A stretch of 48,365 bases of DNA. It comes from a virus. The translations under genes were made by a program, and so were the position numbers. Shown here in pieces: positions 14,872 through 46,893 of the stretch; position 1 is the stretch's first letter; each line of letters begins with the position of its first letter. Location of the stretch: IMG/VR virus record IMGVR_UViG_3300013297_000009, positions 1 through 48,365 of that record, one strand, 5' to 3'. The notes under the pieces were generated by a model, which saw nothing but the letters and a program-made list of their open reading frames with translations, ran no database searches and was not told the DNA's origin.

Positions 14872-15249
14872 ATGCCATTTGAAACGGGCAACCAATTAGC
14901 CAAGGGAGGCGCAAGGCCAGGATCGGGACCGAAGCCAGACAACATCAAGCGAGAGTTGCAGCAGATACTTGATGAGGCGGTCCCTGATGAGCATCGCAAA
15001 GACATATTTGTAATGCTTGCAACACGCGCACGCTCGGGGGACACTAAGGCTGCCGCTCTTGTTCTAGGCTATATCTACGGCAAGCCGGTAGAGCGTAAAT
15101 CCCACTCATTCGAGAATGAATCAGACTCCGATCTTATCGCCGGAACAGCGGCAATCCTTCAAGGACTTGCAGGCGCGTTTGCTGGAAATGCAGAGGCGCG
15201 GGCTGCCACTGCCGAACCTGACGGAAGCGATACGGAATCCGGAGAGTGA
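14872..15249 (+). CDS. terS: Terminase small subunit, 125 aa
   Basis: Small DNA-recognition subunit that binds the packaging site and presents DNA to the large subunit. The N-terminus (GNQLAKGGARPGSGPKPDNI) is the classical G-A-R-P-G-S-G-P-K start seen in many phage TerS. A helical domain follows (LQQILDEAVPDEHRKDIFVM). The C-terminus is acidic (EPDGSDTESGE). It overlaps the large-subunit gene by 134 nt if the first ATG of the latter is used. Confidence 0.75.
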   Translation: MPFETGNQLAKGGARPGSGPKPDNIKRELQQILDEAVPDEHRKDIFVMLATRARSGDTKAAALVLGYIYGKPVERKSHSFENESDSDLIAGTAAILQGLAGAFAGNAEARAATAEPDGSDTESGE

Positions 15250-16633
15250 GAGGGTTTATCCTGACCTCTGGCAGTTTGTAGAAGACACCAGTGCCGTTCG
15301 ATTAGACGCTTGGCAGCACCACTTATGCAATCGACTCCAGCAACTACCAGAACAGACAGGACAGCGGATAGCGATACACGCACCGCCCCAGTTGGGCAAG
15401 TCTTTGATTGTGTCTCAACGATTACCAGCGTGGTATATCGGGCGACTGCCGACAACACGTATCAAGCTGTCTTGCTACAATATCACTCAGGCGACAAGGC
15501 ATGGCGTCGTATGCCGCCAGATTATGCAAGATCCGTCGTATACGGAGTGGTTCGGCCCGGATAGGTCAATCCCGGCCCGCTGTAGCGCAGAAGAGTTCAC
15601 CACCGATGCACGCAGGAGACTGCGAGACGCGCAACCGTCATTCAAGGCGTTAGGGCTGGCAACTGGATTTGTTGGGCAAGGTGCGGACCTACTGATTATT
15701 GACGACCCGTACGCATCGCCACAGGACGCAATGTCGGAGGTTGTGAGAGAGTCTACGTGGGCGTTTTGGGATGAATCCGCCCGCGTTCGATTGACAGAGC
15801 AAACCAACGTTGTTGTGATGTTCCACCGCTACCATGGTGATGACCTTGCAGGCCGGTTATTCGAGCGCGAGGGTGTCATTGAAGAGGGGGGTGCATGGGA
15901 AGTCCTGCGGTATGCGGCTCAGGAGGACGGCGAGAAGTACTGTATGCCGCCCGATCGCGATGGAGGGGCGTATCTCTCAACCCGGTTTAGCCAGGAATGG
16001 TACAAGTCTCAAGAGGCACGCGGTTTAATCTGGTTTGCACAGTTTCAGGGCAGGCCGAGTGCCAAGGAGGGCTTGTTCTTCCAGCCTGATAAGATTGGTG
16101 TTGTTGATGAGCCCTCTTCCGATGTAAATGCTATGCGCGTTCGGGCATGGGACTTTGCAGCAACCGCAGGCGCAGGTGACTGGACTGTTGGCGTTCTTCA
16201 GTCTCACACCAAAGGAACCACTTTGATAGAAGATGTGAGGCGCGGCCAATATTCACCCGAAATGGTTGAGTTTAATGTGATCAATTGCGCGCAGAATGAC
16301 CCGCCTGGAACTTTGATACGGATACCTCAAGACCCTGGTGCCGCAGGCAAGCATATGGCAATAGCGATGAAGAATCGCCTGCATCAACTGGGATATCGTG
16401 TCAAATATGAGCCGATATCTGGAGCTAAGGAAAGTCGAGCCTATGACTTTGCCTGTGCTGTTAATGGCGGAATCGTAAATATGGTTCGCGCGCCTTGGAA
16501 TAGCAAGTTTCGTGAAGAGTTGAGGTCCTTTCCGTTGGGTGCGAACGATGACCAAGTGGACGCCGCCAGTGATGGATATAACGAATATGCTAAGCGTGGG
16601 CGTATTTCAGTTGTACGAAGTGGGAGATCTTAA
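15116..16633 (+). CDS. terL: Terminase large subunit, 505 aa
   Basis: DNA-packaging motor and nuclease. Walker A-like APPQLGKS is at residues 89-96 and Walker B LLIIDDP at 192-198. The C-terminal RNase H-like nuclease shows RAWDFAAT (D346) and a late NDDQVDAASD (about 477-486), the usual second metal-binding Asp pair. Length fits the family. The start is uncertain: ATG 15116 lies deep inside TerS, and an in-frame ATG at 15188 is possible. The portal gene follows immediately after TAA. Confidence 0.93.
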   Translation: MNQTPILSPEQRQSFKDLQARLLEMQRRGLPLPNLTEAIRNPESERVYPDLWQFVEDTSAVRLDAWQHHLCNRLQQLPEQTGQRIAIHAPPQLGKSLIVSQRLPAWYIGRLPTTRIKLSCYNITQATRHGVVCRQIMQDPSYTEWFGPDRSIPARCSAEEFTTDARRRLRDAQPSFKALGLATGFVGQGADLLIIDDPYASPQDAMSEVVRESTWAFWDESARVRLTEQTNVVVMFHRYHGDDLAGRLFEREGVIEEGGAWEVLRYAAQEDGEKYCMPPDRDGGAYLSTRFSQEWYKSQEARGLIWFAQFQGRPSAKEGLFFQPDKIGVVDEPSSDVNAMRVRAWDFAATAGAGDWTVGVLQSHTKGTTLIEDVRRGQYSPEMVEFNVINCAQNDPPGTLIRIPQDPGAAGKHMAIAMKNRLHQLGYRVKYEPISGAKESRAYDFACAVNGGIVNMVRAPWNSKFREELRSFPLGANDDQVDAASDGYNEYAKRGRISVVRSGRS

Positions 16634-18184
16634 TTGCTCTCCGGCCTAACATACGCGCCATCCCAGGCAGCAGTACAGAATAAGCGGCTTCAGGCGTTCG
16701 GCATAAGCGCTAAGCAGAAGCAGGCGATCCGTGCATGGCGTTACTGGGATGGTACTGCTTACAGCCGCCAGTACGGGATGCAGTTTCCGCACCCGTATGT
16801 GGAGTGGGATGAGACCAAGAACGGGCCGCGGCCTCTTATCCAGCCGCTACCAAAGATAGTAGTGGAGCAGTCTGCTCAGTTCCTATTCGGGGAGCAGCCG
16901 AGGTTCATTGTTGGCAAGCAGGAGGACACCGGCGACGGCTCTCTGCAAAAGCTGCTGGACGACATTATCAGCATGAACCAGCTCTATGAGAAGCTGCTGC
17001 CGGAGGCGAGAGCGTGTAGTATCGAGGGTGGCCGCGTGTTCAAGTACGCATGGACGCCGGAGATGACAAAACGCCCTGTTGCCATCATGACTCACACGCA
17101 GTTCCACGTCACATTTGACCGTGATGACTTGGACGCAGACAAGATTAACTCTGCTGTGCTGCGCTTCAAATATCAGGATGGGCAGGGTGAATGGTGGTGG
17201 TATCAGGAGAAGTGGGACGAGAAGCGGCTAACTGTTTACAGGCGTATCCATACCACCGAGAACGACGATAGCGGGTTCCAGCAGCAGATAGAACAGCACC
17301 AGTGGCCGGTAGATTACTCGCAGACTAACCCATTCGGCGTTATCCCGTTCACTGCCGTTCATAACCGATTGATTGCCGGTGAGACTGACGGGTACGGTGA
17401 TTACTGGGACCTGTTCGGGATGTTCGATCAGTACAATCACAAATGCTGGCTGGAGCACAAATCCGACCAGATAGACATTGACCGTATTCTCGTGGTGCTG
17501 AACGACAGTTCTATTGACCTTGTATTACCGAAGGCTGGGGATGCGCTTAAGATCAACGGTGAGAACACAGATGCGAAGTGGTTAGAAGCCGCTAACAATA
17601 TGCGGCCCGAGATCCGTCTGACTAAGGGCGAGCTGAAGCAGATGATCATGCGCGGTGCCGGGTACAGCGACCCGAACCCCGAGGAGATAACCAACAAGGG
17701 CAATCTGACCCGCGCTGTCTGGAACCTGGTCTATGCAGACAGCATAAGCAGCACGAGAGAGAAACGGCACCACTGGGGCGAGAACGGCCTGTGCCAATTC
17801 TTTGAGAGTATGTTGCTTGGCCTTAGCCGATTACCCGATGCCTGTACCATGTATCCAGCATTGAAGAAGGTTAGCGATCAAGACCCCACAACGTATGACG
17901 TTCAGATTAAGTGGGGCGAGATGTTCAAGACAACGGTAGAGGAGCGCACTGCGACCATAACAGACGCCACTGCCAGTATTACCTCTGGTTTCCTAACTCG
18001 TGAGCGTGCTACGGGTATTGTGGCCGATGCGTGGGGCATTGAGGACGTGGCAGTGCTGCTGGAGGAGCTGCAAGACCAGCACGAAATGCTTGATGAGGTT
18101 GACCAGGCCAACGTGGACACGCTGACGGCTGGCGTCCAGAAGACGCTGGCTGATGCGAAGGGTGATGATGGTGGAAATGATTGA
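16634..18184 (+). CDS. Portal protein (SPP1 gp6-like), 516 aa
   Basis: Forms the dodecameric ring through which DNA passes. The TTG start at 16634 follows the terminase TAA directly, with GGGAGA as ribosome site. It has the layout of SPP1-type portals: a basic N-terminus, a YVEWDE/PLIQPLPKIVVEQ segment, an NPFGVIPF block, a long wing and a Glu-rich helical C-terminus. Position after TerL and before the MuF gene supports this. TTG use is notable for such a highly needed gene. Confidence 0.9.
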   Translation: MLSGLTYAPSQAAVQNKRLQAFGISAKQKQAIRAWRYWDGTAYSRQYGMQFPHPYVEWDETKNGPRPLIQPLPKIVVEQSAQFLFGEQPRFIVGKQEDTGDGSLQKLLDDIISMNQLYEKLLPEARACSIEGGRVFKYAWTPEMTKRPVAIMTHTQFHVTFDRDDLDADKINSAVLRFKYQDGQGEWWWYQEKWDEKRLTVYRRIHTTENDDSGFQQQIEQHQWPVDYSQTNPFGVIPFTAVHNRLIAGETDGYGDYWDLFGMFDQYNHKCWLEHKSDQIDIDRILVVLNDSSIDLVLPKAGDALKINGENTDAKWLEAANNMRPEIRLTKGELKQMIMRGAGYSDPNPEEITNKGNLTRAVWNLVYADSISSTREKRHHWGENGLCQFFESMLLGLSRLPDACTMYPALKKVSDQDPTTYDVQIKWGEMFKTTVEERTATITDATASITSGFLTRERATGIVADAWGIEDVAVLLEELQDQHEMLDEVDQANVDTLTAGVQKTLADAKGDDGGND

Positions 18185-27155: not shown

Positions 27156-29597
27156 ATGCCAGACAATGAACTCTCACTAGGCTTAAGCGTTCAGAAGGAC
27201 ATTGACGAGCTTAAGCGGTTTCAGCAGGAGCTAAAGAACACCAAGGCTCTGGCGTCTGAAGCCGTGGCAGCCTTCCGTGGTGGCACTGGCTCGGCTGCTG
27301 ATGCGCGTCAGGCCATCAATGCGGCTTCCCAGGCAGGGACCGGGGGTGTTCAGGGGTCCGCTTCTTCGGGTTCTTCTGGCGGCGCGACTCCGGCCTCCGT
27401 AATGGCCGCTGCGAGCGTGCAGGGTAGACCGGCTGATGTAGCGGCTTATAACCTCTTAACTAAGCAGTTCCCCGGAATGCCGCAACGCTATTACGATGAT
27501 GCTGCTCAAAAGCTGGGCGTGTCTATAGGTGCGCCTGCATCAAGCAGTTTCAACTCTAACGCCGCGATGATCGGTATCGCTCAAACGGCGATGAGTGCTG
27601 CTAGTGGACTTGGAAATGCGGCTGCGCTTGCCGCTGCATCCTCTGCCGCTGGTGCTGGTGGCGGTTTTGGAGGCCCCGGCGCATGGACAGGGCATGCGGC
27701 TACTTTCGCGGCCCAGAACGCCAACGGATACGGCAGCTTCTCTCCTGCACAACTCGCGTTCTTTCAAGGTCAAACCAACCTCGCGTACCTCCCCACTGCG
27801 ATGGCAGCCACTCAGAACGCAATCGCTAGACGAATAGCCCCGGGTAACTTTCCACAGACCCAGGCCTCAATACTCGCGAATCAGGTGAGCCTTGGGTATA
27901 TCGGCGTTGAAGGGATTTCTGGAGGGTTCAATCTCGCGACAAACGCGACACGCGCAGGTATGACACCTGCTGCCTCTCCGATGGCTGGAATGGAACTAGG
28001 CGGGAGAATCGGCGGCAGCTTGTTAGGGCTTGGGATCGGGATTTTGTCAGGAAACCCGATAGTCGCAGCGATGGCAATGATGGGAGGCGGCGAAGTCGGT
28101 TCCTCGGCTATGCGTTACTTTGGCGCACCGGCCCAGAATGCCACGGACGCGGCGTTCGCGATGGCCCCGTTCAGGAACTCGCTTAGCGGCATGGAGACGG
28201 GTTACAAACTTAGCGGCTCGATGTACCGGCTGCAAGAAATGCAGAGAATAGCGAACGAGTCATTCAAGTCTGGATCGCCGTTTCGATTCTCTGACGCGCT
28301 AGCTCCTGATATGGGAAAGGCGGCAAGTAGCATTAATGAAGGGCTCTTTTTGGGAGGGATCGACCCGTATCAGCGCGCAGGCAACGGACGAGTATATCAT
28401 CCGGGCGAAGCAGACTTCCAGCACGCTAGAGATATCGTTGACGGCAAGACAGGTACAACGCCATCATTGCGGGCCCCGTTTGGGCTGGGATATCTTGGTA
28501 TTGGGCAGATTAAAGAGATAGCCGGAGTCGGGCGCGAGCAAGTCGGCGAAATGTATCTGCGCCGTATCGCTTCCATTTATGGTGCGCCGAACGTTGCTGC
28601 ACAATCGGAACGAATGGCCCCGATGTTTGCCTCGCTTCCTTCAACGGGTGGCAACATTACCGACATGATGGCTCGGTTCGGCCCGGTTGCCGTCAGCGCG
28701 TTTCTGAGAATACAGAATGATGATCTGACGTCCTCGGTTCCTTCCGGCGACCTCATGCACAACTTCGCGACAAAGCAAGGGTTGGATCGGCAGGCGGCAC
28801 TCGCGTCCCTTCAGGTCATCGGTGCTGGTGGCGGTGTGGCTGAAGCGATGAAGGCGAAGATGGCTGAAATTGCCAAGATGCCGGGAGGCGCGAAGAGTCT
28901 TGACTACGCTCAGACGTCAGCTAATTACCGATCAGGATTGAGCCAGCAATTCGGAGATGACATTACCGCAAAGTACGGAATGGAGCAACTCGGGATTCGT
29001 GAACGTCTGGCAATGGCGCAGTTGCGGCCATACGCGCCGGGCGCGGTCTATGGTGAGCAGGCTGCTTTAATCCGAAGCCAGCGCGGCGAAGCTGGAATGA
29101 TTGCCCAGCAGATAGCCCAGCGAAAAGCTGACGGCACCCTCTCTGTACAGGAAGAATACAGCCTCCGCGCACGGCAGGCAAGCGCGAATATTGAAGCGGC
29201 ACAGGGAATCGCTACGATAGCGGAAGGTGGCGCGAATATCCTGCCTGGGCTGTCTGGCGGAATGCCTGCCGGATTGAGTAGGTTCAATTCCCCAATGCTC
29301 GCCTCGCTTATGCTTGGTAGATACGGTTCGCCGCGACGTTCGGCAGGTTCGTTTAATGGCGCTCATGCTGCCGCACAGGATGCATTTTATGATGGCTTTG
29401 GAGTCTCAAGCGGGCCGTACAGTCGCAGCGGAGGAGCTAATGATTTCAGCGGCGGGCGTGTTGAGGAGTTGCTCGGAAGGATTGTGAATCTTCTGGAAGG
29501 TCTGAATGGGACTGGAAAAGGTTCATTCCCGAGCAATAACGGCGGGAGTGGGAACACCGATCAGAACGGTGTAAGATGGCAAGGCAACTTCAATTAA
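27156..29597 (+). CDS. Tape measure protein, 813 aa
   Basis: Sets tail length and is ejected with DNA. Ala/Gly-rich and helical throughout, with a hydrophobic transmembrane-like stretch at about residues 288-315 (GGSLLGLGIGILSGNPIVAA). At about 1.5 angstrom per residue it predicts a tail of about 120 nm. Its C-terminus (RVEELLGRIVNLLEGLNGTG) is a small amphipathic helix. The stop (TAA) overlaps the stop of a minus-strand gene, so transcripts converge here without a visible terminator. Confidence 0.88.
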   Translation: MPDNELSLGLSVQKDIDELKRFQQELKNTKALASEAVAAFRGGTGSAADARQAINAASQAGTGGVQGSASSGSSGGATPASVMAAASVQGRPADVAAYNLLTKQFPGMPQRYYDDAAQKLGVSIGAPASSSFNSNAAMIGIAQTAMSAASGLGNAAALAAASSAAGAGGGFGGPGAWTGHAATFAAQNANGYGSFSPAQLAFFQGQTNLAYLPTAMAATQNAIARRIAPGNFPQTQASILANQVSLGYIGVEGISGGFNLATNATRAGMTPAASPMAGMELGGRIGGSLLGLGIGILSGNPIVAAMAMMGGGEVGSSAMRYFGAPAQNATDAAFAMAPFRNSLSGMETGYKLSGSMYRLQEMQRIANESFKSGSPFRFSDALAPDMGKAASSINEGLFLGGIDPYQRAGNGRVYHPGEADFQHARDIVDGKTGTTPSLRAPFGLGYLGIGQIKEIAGVGREQVGEMYLRRIASIYGAPNVAAQSERMAPMFASLPSTGGNITDMMARFGPVAVSAFLRIQNDDLTSSVPSGDLMHNFATKQGLDRQAALASLQVIGAGGGVAEAMKAKMAEIAKMPGGAKSLDYAQTSANYRSGLSQQFGDDITAKYGMEQLGIRERLAMAQLRPYAPGAVYGEQAALIRSQRGEAGMIAQQIAQRKADGTLSVQEEYSLRARQASANIEAAQGIATIAEGGANILPGLSGGMPAGLSRFNSPMLASLMLGRYGSPRRSAGSFNGAHAAAQDAFYDGFGVSSGPYSRSGGANDFSGGRVEELLGRIVNLLEGLNGTGKGSFPSNNGGSGNTDQNGVRWQGNFN

Positions 29598-29845
29598 CGT
29601 CCAAAAGTGAAATACATAAACAGTAAGAGAGCGACAACAAAAACAACGCCCGCAATGATCTCTTTGGCTGGTGCAGTGTAAAACGGATTGAATCTATTCT
29701 CGTGGTTGTCTTGGAAATGAGGAATGGGCCGGGATGCCCTGTTCAATTCTAGTGGTTTGATGCGCTGTCCGCAGTCGCACATTTCCACGCTAGAGGGATT
29801 TGTTCTTTTGCAGAATGGGCAAACCTCATAATCGGTGTCAGGCAT
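29594..29845 (-). CDS. Zinc-ribbon tail-anchored membrane protein, leaderless moron gene, 83 aa
   Basis: Antisense gene within the tail operon. N-terminal Cys cluster CPFCKRTN ... CDCGQRI (CxxC...CxC), a Pro-rich linker and a C-terminal membrane segment (EIIAGVVFVVALLLFMYF, about residues 62-79). It is probably anchored with its head in the cytoplasm. ATG 29845 lies 7 nt after a consensus -10, so the mRNA would begin at or next to the start codon. An in-frame ATG at 29854 is inside the -10 box and cannot be used. It is likely expressed in the prophage and may confer exclusion or host change. Confidence 0.72.
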   Translation of the reverse strand: MPDTDYEVCPFCKRTNPSSVEMCDCGQRIKPLELNRASRPIPHFQDNHENRFNPFYTAPAKEIIAGVVFVVALLLFMYFTFGR

Positions 29846-29852
29846 ACCCGGC

Positions 29853-29882
29853 ATTATACGAAACGAACCTGCATGGTGTCAA
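29853..29882 (-). promoter_or_regulatory. Consensus minus-strand promoter of the moron gene
   Basis: On the minus strand TTGACA (29882-29877), 18-bp spacer and TATAAT (29858-29853), both six of six consensus. It fires against the tail operon. The -10 surround TCGTATAATG is also found in the small-RNA promoter at 36604-36633. Confidence 0.85.
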
Positions 29883-35997: not shown

Positions 35998-36500
35998 TGC
36001 CGATTACCGGGGTGGCGGGCACCGCAGTACAGCAGGCTGCGCTCAAATTTAGCCAGTGCCGGGATAACCGGGGGGCGGCATGGACAACAGCGGTAACGGT
36101 TGCGGCGGCTTGCGACCTGGTTTCTGCTGGTGGGGCATGGCTCGGTAATCGGATGGGCGCGCTCTACACGGTCACCAGTGGCAATACAGCGCAGGTCTAC
36201 TGGAAGTGGACCCCTAATCCGAACGATTGGACTATAAACGGCCCGTCCACGGTAAGCGGGGTAACGGGTCGGGTCTATGGGCTGGCATGTAATCAGGTTG
36301 GGAATCTGTGCGCCATGGTGGGGAAGACGCCGGTGATATCCCATAACGGCGGTTTGACGTGGGCGCAGAAATCGGCAATATCAGCGTTGCCTGCTCAGTA
36401 CACGATTACAGCCTTCCTGCACTACTTCGTTATAGTCGCGCCGTCTGGAACCCGGGTGACACACTATGTAAGCCGGGACGGTGGAGAGACGTTTCAGTGA
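35997..36500 (+). CDS. Asp-box (BNR) beta-propeller-like virion protein, 167 aa
   Basis: Two Asp-box motifs (S-x-D/N-G-G-x-T-W/F): ISHNGGLTW in the middle and VSRDGGETF at the end, as in sialidase-like and glycan-binding propellers. Only two blades are visible, so the full propeller may need an oligomer or a partner. Likely tail tip or receptor module. It overlaps the next gene by GTGA. Confidence 0.65.
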   Translation: MPITGVAGTAVQQAALKFSQCRDNRGAAWTTAVTVAAACDLVSAGGAWLGNRMGALYTVTSGNTAQVYWKWTPNPNDWTINGPSTVSGVTGRVYGLACNQVGNLCAMVGKTPVISHNGGLTWAQKSAISALPAQYTITAFLHYFVIVAPSGTRVTHYVSRDGGETFQ

Positions 36501-36607
36501 ACGATAAACTATTCTGGATAGCTATTCGCCGCGCTCTTCTTGCCGCGTGCAAGGCCATTGCTGAGCGATACGATCTGAAGCTCACGGATGAGGAAAAGGC
36601 CGTTTGA
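36497..36607 (+). CDS. Tiny phage protein, 36 aa
   Basis: GTG 36497 overlaps the TGA of the upstream gene. The product KLFWIAIRRALLAACKAIAE, then RYDLKLTDEEKAV, is an amphipathic helix of a kind commonly found just before the lysis genes of siphoviruses. Function unknown. Its stop codon lies inside the -35 box of the next promoter. Confidence 0.5.
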   Translation: MNDKLFWIAIRRALLAACKAIAERYDLKLTDEEKAV

Positions 36608-36633
36608 CACTGAAGCGAGCAAAGTCGTATAAT
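36604..36633 (+). promoter_or_regulatory. Consensus promoter for structured RNA
   Basis: TTGACA (36604-36609), 18-bp spacer and TATAAT (36628-36633), six of six matches each. It overlaps the end of the tiny gene at 36497 and would start RNA near 36640-36642, exactly where the first strand of the long stem begins. Confidence 0.85.
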
Positions 36634-36640
36634 GAGGCAA

Positions 36641-36742
36641 TAGGTTGCGGAGGGCGGTGAACGGACGACGTAGCCGCTAGCGAGCGACGCGAAAGCCCTT
36701 ACGGGGTCTATGCCGGGTAGCGACCGGTTCCGCAACCTTTTA
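36641..36742 (+). ncRNA. Putative structured small RNA, about 100 nt
   Basis: Starts at the promoter above. AGGTTGCGG (36642-36650) pairs exactly with CCGCAACCT (36730-36738), closing the RNA end to end. Next to it AGGGC (36651-36655) pairs with GCCCT (36695-36699), and GGTC (36705-36708) pairs with GACC (36722-36725). The closing stem is followed by TTTT, so it doubles as a terminator. It does not fold as tRNA, tmRNA or hammerhead. It may be a prophage-expressed regulatory or immunity RNA. Confidence 0.65.
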
Positions 36743-36777
36743 ACTTTATAACCACGGCCTCACGGTAAACACCGTCC

Positions 36778-36828
36778 CGCCTGCTTGAATGAGACGCCTT
36801 GAGCGTTTTGTTTCGGCAGGCGTTTTTT
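36778..36828 (+). terminator. Rho-independent terminator
   Basis: CGCCTGC (36778-36784) with GCAGGCG (36816-36822) and then TTTTTT. A smaller ACGC-N5-GCGT hairpin with TTTT (36794-36809) is nested in the loop. It would stop read-through from the tail operon or the small RNA promoter before the lysis genes. Confidence 0.7.
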
Positions 36829-36846
36829 GTTTATCAGGCAATCCTT

Positions 36847-36942
36847 CCCCGGCTACTTTGGACGGGAACCGGGGAGCGGATTGAGGCAGCCCTGACGCGG
36901 GTCAGGGTGCGAAACGCGATTCGCTGTAGTGATGCGCGAATC
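36847..36942 (+). promoter_or_regulatory. Three-hairpin leader before the lysis cassette
   Basis: CCCCGG/CCGGGG (36847-36852 with 36869-36874), CCCTGAC/GTCAGGG (36890-36896 with 36901-36907), GATTCGC/GCGAATC (36918-36924 with 36936-36942). The start codon of the next gene follows 22 nt later with GGGAG. It may regulate lysis timing. No known riboswitch is recognised. Confidence 0.5.
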
Positions 36943-36963
36943 CTCTAACGCGGGAGAACACAA

Positions 36964-38770: not shown

Positions 38771-38962
38771 ATGAACCTACCAATGACAAAGTATTGTGAT
38801 AAGTGTGGGAAGCCTGTGTATATGGCAGGGCTAACGTCCGCATCAACTAACAATGCTACGAGCGTTCTTATGTGTACTTGCCATTTCGCCAACGTACAAA
38901 TAGACTGCTCATCTCTCAAAAATTTCAAAGTGATTAACACGTCCGGGACTCAATCGTTATGA
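38771..38962 (+). CDS. Small zinc-ribbon protein, 63 aa
   Basis: Cys motifs CDKCGKPVYMAG and LMCTCHF suggest a single zinc ribbon; the C-terminus is polar (SSLKNFKVINTSGTQ). Function unknown. It overlaps the endolysin start. Confidence 0.6.
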   Translation: MNLPMTKYCDKCGKPVYMAGLTSASTNNATSVLMCTCHFANVQIDCSSLKNFKVINTSGTQSL

Positions 38963-39492
38963 CACCGCCATTCCGAGAACGCCTCCTCGCCGTAGCTCAG
39001 CACTACGCTGACGCTCACGTCAAAGAGCAAGGCGGCAACAACAGAGGCCCGGAAGTCGATCACTTCCTCCGTGTCGTGGATGTGCCTCCGGGAGAGCCGT
39101 GGTGCGCTGCGGCTGTTGTGACGTGGGCGTGCGAAGCCTATTTGAAATCCATCAATGACACCACGCCTACAGCGGAGGATTTCAAGCATGCCAAGATATG
39201 GCTCGGCTTAAACTACTTCGCACCGTCGCCTGCCGTGGCGCTTATTGAGGCGAATGCTAAGAAGCGCGGAATCTTTTGGAATAAGGCGTGGACGCCGACG
39301 CCCGGATCGTTGGTCATTTACCATTTCCCGACAGGGAGTCATATCGGCGTTGTGGTGAAAGACCGCGGCCCCACACTCGACACGATTGAAGGCAATACCT
39401 CAGACGGAAACGCGCGGGATGGTGACGGTGTATTTGCCCGCACCCGCGACAAGAAGTATGTCGCAGGTTATGTGGACCTCGGCAATCAGTAG
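38959..39492 (+). CDS. CHAP/NlpC-type endolysin, 177 aa
   Basis: Cell-wall hydrolase of the CHAP family (amidase or endopeptidase). Catalytic Cys49 in GEPWCAAAVVTW, His128 in TGSHIGVVV and a Glu/Asn at 144-146 in IEGNTS. N-terminal helix (RERLLAVAQHYADAH). Without a signal peptide it would leave through the holin. Last gene of the lysis cassette. Confidence 0.85.
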   Translation: MTPPFRERLLAVAQHYADAHVKEQGGNNRGPEVDHFLRVVDVPPGEPWCAAAVVTWACEAYLKSINDTTPTAEDFKHAKIWLGLNYFAPSPAVALIEANAKKRGIFWNKAWTPTPGSLVIYHFPTGSHIGVVVKDRGPTLDTIEGNTSDGNARDGDGVFARTRDKKYVAGYVDLGNQ

Positions 39493-44719: not shown

Positions 44720-45736
44720 TTATTTGCTCCTCATGGAAATGCGCTGCCGATGACTCTGATTAATCTCGCGCTGCGCGGGTGGTGTGATTGGTAGTGCGTG
44801 CGGCTGGATCGGCTGTATCTGTGCTGGCTGCTTGAATCCGAGCTTGTCCTCGGCAACCTGAAACAGGTGTATCGAACCTTCCCGTAAATAAACCTCGGTT
44901 GTAGCAAGTCGCTCATGTCCGAGCAGGGCTTGAATGTCGCGCATCGGGGCGTTGTTGCGGTGCATTCGGTCTGCCGTGTTGTGGCGGATACTGTGAGGCA
45001 GGAAGTTCTTTGCTCCTCGCATCTCTGCGGCTGCCGCAATATCCCGGAGAAGAGTGCGGAGCCCAACGTCACCAAGCCGCCTGTTATGGTCAATGGCGAA
45101 CAGGAAGTCGTGTTTGCAGGTTCCGCGCAAATCCCTCCATGCAATGATCGCGGCGTGAGCGGCACTGATTAGCGGTGTCTCACGTGTTTTCTGACCCTTA
45201 CCGTTGCGGACTATTAAGCGGCGCTCACGCCCGTCTTCGCTCATCACAACATCATTCAGCCGCAAGTTCATCAGCTCCGTTCGGCGGATAGCGCAGTACG
45301 TAAATATTGAGAGGACCGCCTTACCCATTGCGGCGCGGCGCGCATCTGCTAAACGGTCACAGGCGACGAGATATGCCTGTACCTCCTCGTCCGTAATATG
45401 CTCACGCTCAGCGGCGTCTAGTTGCGGCTTGTCCAGTTGCATCGCAGGATTCGCTTCAAGGCACTTCTTCTTCTCAACCATCCATTTACCAAAGTTGCGC
45501 AGCGCGTCGATATGCGCGGTCCGTGTTCGAGGCCGATCACCCTTGTTAGTCCGATAGGTAATCCAGGCATAGAGAACTTCATAGTTGAAATCGATTACTG
45601 TAGGGGTCGCGCCGGTCGCCTCCAGCCAGAGAATGAACGCACGAATCCGGCTGCCATACGACTTTATAGTCGTGCGCGGATTGTTATCATTGCGCATCTT
45701 TGTGACGTATTCGTTGACGAGCACTCGAAGCGTCAT
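44720..45736 (-). CDS. int: Tyrosine-recombinase integrase, 338 aa
   Basis: Catalyses integration and excision. SAM-like N-terminal core-binding domain to about residue 105, then a catalytic domain with Arg (about 150, CAIRRTELMNLR), Lys (about 180, NGKGQKTRETP), HSIRH (about 248), GHERLATT (about 272) and the nucleophile in TTEVYLREG (about 282). A Pro-rich C-terminal extension of about 50 residues is unusual. AGGAGG lies upstream of ATG 45736. attP is 220 bp upstream of the start. Confidence 0.95.
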   Translation of the reverse strand: MTLRVLVNEYVTKMRNDNNPRTTIKSYGSRIRAFILWLEATGATPTVIDFNYEVLYAWITYRTNKGDRPRTRTAHIDALRNFGKWMVEKKKCLEANPAMQLDKPQLDAAEREHITDEEVQAYLVACDRLADARRAAMGKAVLSIFTYCAIRRTELMNLRLNDVVMSEDGRERRLIVRNGKGQKTRETPLISAAHAAIIAWRDLRGTCKHDFLFAIDHNRRLGDVGLRTLLRDIAAAAEMRGAKNFLPHSIRHNTADRMHRNNAPMRDIQALLGHERLATTEVYLREGSIHLFQVAEDKLGFKQPAQIQPIQPHALPITPPAQREINQSHRQRISMRSK

Positions 45737-46140: not shown

Positions 46141-46470
46141 CTATGCTGCCGCACCAAAAAGCACTTCAAGGGCGTCTACTGCTTTCCGTCTTGTTACTAC
46201 GGGAAGCCGCTCCAAGAGCTTTCTTGCGCGGTCTAGATCATCGCTCGATACCGACGAAGCAGGCGGCGGGAATACGCGATTATGGACCTCAACTGCCTCT
46301 AGCTTCAGTGCTTGAGCAATACCAGGAATAGACCTTGAGCTAGGAAGACTGTCTCCTGCTTCCAGCTTCGCCCACATACCGCGAGTGATGCCGGATTCCT
46401 TAGCTGCTTCTTCTTGGGTTAGGTCCAAAGCTCTGCGTTGTTCCCGCAACCATTCATTGAACGGTTGCAC
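46141..46470 (-). CDS. HTH (Xre/CI-like) repressor, 109 aa
   Basis: GTG 46470 is chosen because AAGGAGGTGA ends four bases upstream; an ATG at 46512 overlaps the promoter -10. HTH of Xre type at about residues 10-40 (REQRRALDLTQEEAAKESGI, then WAKLEAGDSLPSS). The C-terminal helical part (ARKLLERLPVVTRRKAVDAL) probably dimerises. There is no S24 peptidase, so induction would not use RecA-stimulated self-cleavage. Likely maintains lysogeny by binding the palindromes at 46493 and 46873. Confidence 0.85.
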   Translation of the reverse strand: MQPFNEWLREQRRALDLTQEEAAKESGITRGMWAKLEAGDSLPSSRSIPGIAQALKLEAVEVHNRVFPPPASSVSSDDLDRARKLLERLPVVTRRKAVDALEVLFGAAA

Positions 46471-46492
46471 TGACTCACCTCCTTTCTCAAAC

Positions 46493-46511
46493 TGTATAAC
46501 CGCATTATACA
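46493..46511. promoter_or_regulatory. Operator palindrome 1
   Basis: TGTATAA-N5-TTATACA, a perfect 7-5-7 palindrome that overlaps the repressor -10 (46504-46509). An imperfect version (TGTATAA with a degenerate right arm) lies at 46542-46560, over the -35 of the divergent promoter. Confidence 0.75.
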
Positions 46512-46532
46512 ATAAAGGTATGTGAAATGCAA
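46504..46532 (-). promoter_or_regulatory. Repressor promoter
   Basis: Minus strand TTGCAT (46532-46527), 17-bp spacer and TATAAT (46509-46504). Overlaps operator 1, so the repressor may regulate itself. Confidence 0.68.
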
Positions 46533-46620: not shown

Positions 46621-46848
46621 ATGACCGGTTCCGATTACAAGCATGAAATGATCCGAGCCCTCCGCAAGCTCAGCGGTATGACGCAAGCAGAGCTGGCTGA
46701 GAAGGCAGGCGTATCACGCATGATGATAAGCCTGGCCGAAAAAGGCTCATACCTCCACTTCGACCGCCTCAAGTTAATAGCTGAAGCATTCGGCATCCAG
46801 CCAAAAGATTTACTCCGCGATACAGTTCCCGAAAAAACATTTGCCTGA
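46621..46848 (+). CDS. Cro-like HTH protein, 75 aa
   Basis: ATG 46621 after GGGGGAG. Compact HTH_3 protein: IRALRKLSGMTQAELAEKAG, then SRMMISLAEKGSYL and AEAFGIQPKDLL. Divergent from the repressor, so it is probably Cro-like. It might bind the same palindromes to commit the phage to lysis. Confidence 0.82.
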   Translation: MTGSDYKHEMIRALRKLSGMTQAELAEKAGVSRMMISLAEKGSYLHFDRLKLIAEAFGIQPKDLLRDTVPEKTFA

Positions 46849-46863
46849 TTTTGTGAATATCTA

Positions 46864-46893
46864 TTGACATTATGTATAACAGTGTTATACAAT
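46864..46893 (+). promoter_or_regulatory. Early-operon promoter covered by operator palindrome 2
   Basis: TTGACA (46864-46869) with TACAAT (46888-46893) at 18-bp spacing. The perfect palindrome TGTATAA-N5-TTATACA (46873-46891) fills the space between the boxes, so the repressor would block it fully. It should drive the early genes from 46939. Confidence 0.72.

What the first reader, a model, noticed from the sequence alone, without database searches (positions are those of the whole stretch)
36604..36742. Consensus promoter feeding an end-to-end closed structured RNA between tail and lysis genes
TTGACA-N18-TATAAT lies exactly so that transcription starts at the first strand of a 9-bp stem (36642-36650) that pairs with 36730-36738 and is followed by TTTT. 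The roughly 100-nt product has inner helices and no open frame. Its -10 surround (TCGTATAATG) and 18-bp spacer match the moron promoter at 29853-29882, so both may be active in the prophage. It fits no RNA class I know.
Basis: partly seen in the sequence, partly recalled or inferred. Interest (0 to 1): 0.75.

Follow-up and report, generated by a model that had tools for sequence, protein, structure and literature searches.

The report
Phage small-RNA gene, no known relatives
A temperate phage from a metagenome carries, between its tail and lysis genes, what looks like a complete small-RNA gene (perfect promoter, tightly folded non-coding RNA, strong terminator) that resembles nothing in the databases searched; it is very likely a real gene, but its job is unknown and phages carrying small RNAs of their own are already known.

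Summary
TTGACA-18-TATAAT at 36604-36633 is one of only two perfect sigma-70 promoters in the 48-kb record (about 0.009 expected). Transcription would start 0-2 bases before a 10-bp closing stem (36642-36651 / 36729-36738) around four hairpins. The fold is -46.5 kcal/mol; 0.04% of same-length windows of the genome fold as well, and none of those is also closed. No open frame exceeds 15 codons.

One part of the reading fails. The TTTT after the stem is not the end of the gene: a 19-bp hairpin at 36778-36822 followed by TTTTTTG is the evident intrinsic terminator, so the expected RNA is about 190 nt, not 100. The terminator folds independently of the 5' domain, so it does not look like an attenuator.

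No relative was found (Rfam 15, blastn against phages and plasmids, three DNA patterns over 2.9 million viral contigs, a covariance model over held loci). The closest phage (L002) lacks the unit although it shares the adjoining leader and lysis-side genes. Covariation could not be tested. Best reading: a self-contained small-RNA "moron", probably transcribed in the lysogen. Target and mechanism remain unknown. A real but orphan member of a known kind.

The parts
36604..36633 (+). Perfect sigma-70 promoter: -35 TTGACA 36604-36609, 18-bp spacer, -10 TATAAT 36628-36633; predicted start 36640-36642
   Evidence: one of two perfect sites, 0.009 expected
36642..36738 (+). Closed 97-nt RNA domain: 10-bp closing stem 36642-36651/36729-36738 and four hairpin arms (about 36653-36678, 36680-36690, 36695-36707, 36712-36728)
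36739..36775 (+). Linker: unpaired A/U-rich stretch 36739-36755 and small hairpin ACGGT-AAAC-ACCGT 36762-36775
36778..36829 (+). Intrinsic terminator: 19-bp hairpin 36778-36822 with one internal mismatch and 5-nt loop, then TTTTTTG
29853..29882 (-). The other perfect promoter (18-bp spacer, same TCGTATAATG), driving a lone minus-strand gene whose ATG is at 29845

Best explanation
This is a self-contained non-coding small-RNA gene, a moron-type unit, in a temperate phage. Host RNA polymerase with the housekeeping sigma factor transcribes about 190 nt from 36640-36642 to about 36830. The RNA has a stable, closed 97-nt five-way-junction domain at its 5' end, a short A/U-rich single-stranded linker and a terminator hairpin with a U tail. 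It is probably made constitutively, including in the lysogen, and acts in trans on a host or phage RNA or protein. Shown in the sequence: promoter, predicted domain, terminator and lack of a reading frame. Inferred: transcription, expression in the lysogen and action in trans. Unknown: the target.
For: Perfect promoter placed exactly at the closing stem; exceptional, closed and nearly unique fold; strong own terminator that folds independently of the domain; no reading frame; the unit is missing from the closest phage, which keeps the adjoining leader and gene; no operator-like site at this promoter while the immunity promoters have them; phage small RNAs at moron sites are known in E. coli prophages (PMC4104026).
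Against: No homologue, so no covariation; no transcript data; no phage target found by pairing; host unknown. The upstream genes of L002 differ, so absence there does not prove an insertion.
Confidence: 0.55

Rival explanations
1. It is a cis-acting leader at the start of a lysis-module transcript: a put-like antitermination RNA, or a lambda pR'-like leader, that lets polymerase pass the terminator at 36778-36829 when a factor or condition allows.
For: The domain sits directly at the start of the transcript, a terminator follows 40 nt on, and lysis-side genes lie downstream on the same strand. HK022 putL is likewise just downstream of its promoter (PMC9378689).
Against: Domain and terminator form together without competition; the shape is a five-way junction, not the two stem-loops of put; L002 runs the same leader and gene without the unit.
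Confidence: 0.15
2. The closed domain is a structural or catalytic RNA (protein-binding scaffold, decoy or ribozyme) that works through its shape, perhaps after being cut free at the TTTT.
For: The five-way junction is compact, closed end to end and dominates the ensemble; its loops repeat GCGA and TAGCGA.
Against: No match to any described family; no protein partner known; the repeats are short.
Confidence: 0.2
3. It is a decayed or selectively neutral transcription unit; the terminator simply closes the tail operon.
For: Not found in any other record searched, as expected of DNA under little selection; a tail operon could use a terminator here.
Against: Perfect promoter, in-register closing stem and strong terminator all intact together are improbable for decayed DNA.
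Confidence: 0.1

Closest known systems
Small RNAs at moron sites of lambdoid prophages (EcOnc01-03, AsxR, AgvB; Tree et al. 2014, PMC4104026)
   Same: Small non-coding RNA units of a prophage among its accessory (moron) genes; some end at intrinsic terminators
   Different: Those tested are 51-60 nt with a conserved 3' region; this one is about 190 nt with a closed 97-nt 5' domain and no sequence relation was found; Hfq binding unknown here
putRNA of phage HK022 (PMC9378689)
   Same: Structured phage RNA just downstream of a strong promoter and upstream of a terminator
   Different: put is about 70 nt with two stem-loops and suppresses termination in cis; here a five-way junction and no evidence of read-through
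Lambda pR' leader / tR' RNA (own knowledge)
   Same: Short terminated RNA of roughly 190 nt from a constitutive promoter in the late region
   Different: Lies after the tail genes, not before the lysis-late operon; no Q-like gene or site was identified; strongly folded 5' domain
6S RNA (own knowledge)
   Same: Similar total length; stable closed RNA
   Different: Multi-branched rather than a long hairpin with a central bubble; no Rfam match

Membership tests
Autonomous phage small-RNA unit (moron type) | Own promoter | tested here: met
   12/12 sigma-70 promoter
Autonomous phage small-RNA unit (moron type) | Own terminator | tested here: met
   19-bp hairpin and T6 at 36778-36828
Autonomous phage small-RNA unit (moron type) | No coding sequence | tested here: met
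   Longest frame 15 codons
Autonomous phage small-RNA unit (moron type) | Present in one phage and absent at the same junction of a relative | tested here: inconclusive
   Absent in L002, but only the downstream side is homologous
Autonomous phage small-RNA unit (moron type) | Transcribed in the lysogen | not testable with these tools
   Needs RNA data; only absence of an operator-like site was checked
EcOnc/AsxR/AgvB anti-sRNAs | 51-60 nt length with conserved 3' region | tested here: not met
   About 190 nt expected; no blastn match in phage records
putRNA (HK022) | About 70 nt made of two stem-loops | tested here: not met
   97-nt five-way junction
putRNA (HK022) | Suppresses termination downstream | not testable with these tools
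   Needs a read-through assay
Riboswitch or transcription attenuator | Two mutually exclusive structures, one of them the terminator | tested here: not met
   Domain pairs stay at 0.85-1.00 with the terminator present and both form together
Any Rfam 15 family (6S, tRNA, tmRNA, SRP, RNase P, ribozymes) | Match to the covariance model | tested here: not met
   No match at gathering score; at E up to 5 only a spurious snoRNA hit outside the domain; ARAGORN finds none

The most novel reading that the evidence does not exclude
The 97-nt closed five-way-junction domain is the founding example of an undescribed class of compact phage-encoded RNA that acts through its shape and is expressed in lysogens from a consensus promoter.
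Probability: 0.2. Interest if true: 0.6.

Novelty: new member of a known kind. Interest (0 to 1): 0.33.

Why it matters
If transcribed, it is a clearly delimited, unusually well-folded small-RNA gene in a phage far from the enterobacterial prophages where such RNAs have been studied, and it gives a precise construct (promoter, domain, terminator) to test. Without homologues or a known host it does not by itself open a new question.

Tried and rejected
Known families: Rfam, ARAGORN. Homologues: blastn against phages and plasmids (only 22-29-nt chance matches inside annotated genes); viral-contig patterns promoter+GGTTGC (50 stretches, none with a homologous RNA), closing stem (10 stretches, unrelated interiors and no promoter), inner segments (4 stretches, unrelated), adjoining leader (only the L002 contig); covariance model built from the one sequence over held loci and ten records. 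Host: genome scans with the 37562 gene and with the integrase found no relative, so no set of host genomes could be searched. Attenuator with alternative structure: rejected. Coding leader peptide: GTG at 36657 gives only 7 codons, with a crowded GGAGG partly inside the closing stem. Antisense to phage translation starts: nothing better than shuffles after allowing for six tests. Retron, type III toxin-antitoxin or CRISPR-like RNA: considered and dropped by judgement; I saw no reverse transcriptase beside it and no repeat array in the unit.

Full report
The window is an IMG/VR virus record of 48,365 bases. It is a temperate tailed phage: terminase large subunit 15116-16633, portal 16634-18184 and an endolysin at 38959-39492, a tyrosine integrase at 44720-45736 and an HTH repressor-like gene at 46141-46512, both on the minus strand. 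The 27156-29597 gene is taken to be the tape measure from its size and place only; it had no family match.

Observation. The promoter TTGACA-N18-TATAAT is at 36604-36633 and is a 12/12 match. Only one other perfect site with a 16-18 bp spacer exists in the record, 29882-29853 on the minus strand; a first-order Markov estimate for both strands is 0.009. The two share TTGACAC and TCGTATAATG. The start site would fall at 36640-36642. Ten-base-pair Watson-Crick stems of span 70-130 nt begin at 0.019% of positions of this genome. The 97-nt domain folds to -46.5 kcal/mol; of 24,134 windows of that length on both strands 0.04% fold as well, 0.08% are closed by 9 or more pairs, and none has both properties (windows were taken every 4 bases, so the domain itself need not be among them). 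Against dinucleotide shuffles z is -3.0. One structure dominates: closing pairs 0.86-1.00 and the four arms 0.91-1.00 in the ensemble.

Correction. The TTTT after the stem is followed by AACTTTATAACC and is not the likely end. A 19-bp hairpin at 36778-36822, with a 5-nt loop, one internal mismatch and T6 after it, is a strong intrinsic terminator. The primary RNA should therefore be about 190 nt: closed domain, A/U-rich linker, small hairpin, terminator. The longest frame in it from ATG, GTG or TTG is 15 codons. On the minus strand the hairpin is not followed by a T run (read), so the terminator serves the plus strand.

Context. Upstream, the -35 overlaps the stop codon of a 36-codon frame (36497-36607) after the tail genes. 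Downstream comes a structured leader (36838-36963) and small genes before the endolysin. The closest phage found, L002 (IMGVR_UViG_3300005539_000003), has the same leader, a related gene (51% identity) and some shared early genes (up to 92%), but its tail-side gene runs straight into the leader, with no promoter, RNA or terminator. The unit is thus not part of the shared lysis-side module. Because the upstream genes of the two phages differ, a clean insertion cannot be claimed. The second perfect promoter drives a lone minus-strand gene whose ATG (29845) lies 7 bases after the -10 hexamer, so its message would be almost leaderless. The immunity region has operator-like palindromes, GTATAACAGTGTTATAC at 46874-46890 inside a promoter and GTATAACCGCATTATAC at 46494-46510 near the repressor gene start; no such site lies at 36604 or 29882. 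From this I infer, without proof, that both promoters escape the repressor and work in the lysogen.

Relatives. None was found. Rfam 15 gives nothing. Blastn against 50,697 phage and 72,556 plasmid records gives only short chance matches. In 2.9 million viral contigs, a pattern of promoter plus first stem strand gave 50 stretches, none homologous; the closing stem with any 60-90 nt interior gave ten, all unrelated, which is also a control for chance; an inner pattern gave four, unrelated. A covariance model made from the single sequence finds only itself in the loci held and nothing in ten records. The host stayed unknown.

Mechanism. The anatomy fits an independent small-RNA gene best. An attenuator is unlikely, since domain and terminator form together and do not compete. 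A put-like antitermination RNA is possible from position but not from shape: put is about 70 nt with two stem-loops (PMC9378689). Action on phage messages by pairing finds no support: one of six unpaired segments reaches the 3% level against shuffles. I therefore favour a trans-acting small RNA with an unknown, perhaps host, target. Small RNAs at moron sites are known in E. coli prophages (PMC4104026), though those tested are shorter and no sequence relation was found.

Verdict. A real, well delimited, orphan small-RNA unit: the kind is known, the member is new, the function is open.

Noticed in passing
window 36838-36963 (L002:9266-9401): Structured leader before gene 36964. Its first hairpin (CAATCCTTCCCCGG...CCGGGGAGCGGATTG) is identical in L002, and later hairpins keep pairing with changed sequence in part of their length. 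No Rfam match; only these two phages found. A candidate cis-regulatory RNA of the lysis-side genes.
   Followed up: partly
window 29594-29882, minus strand: Lone 83-codon gene with CPFC...CDCG (zinc-ribbon-like, by eye) and a C-terminal hydrophobic segment; perfect promoter with the -10 only 7 bases before the ATG at 29845, so an almost leaderless message. No Pfam, PHROG or phage match.
   Followed up: partly
L038:733-1000: In a 129.8-kb viral contig: perfect promoter followed by a roughly 250-nt RNA closed by GGTTAC/GTAACC and then a terminator-like hairpin with TTTTT. No Rfam, ARAGORN or phage blastn match.
   Followed up: partly
L015:8446-8566 (same sequence in L010 and L029): Perfect promoter followed by a roughly 112-nt RNA closed by TTGTGCGG/CCGCACAA just before a gene; fold z only -1.4; not matched by Rfam, although a tmRNA match lies 2.4 kb further on at L015:11006-11370.
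   Followed up: partly
window 46494-46510 and 46874-46890: Operator-like palindromes GTATAACCGCATTATAC and GTATAACAGTGTTATAC at the immunity-region promoters, beside the repressor-like HTH gene 46141-46512 and a second helix-turn-helix-like small gene 46621-46848 called by eye.
   Followed up: partly
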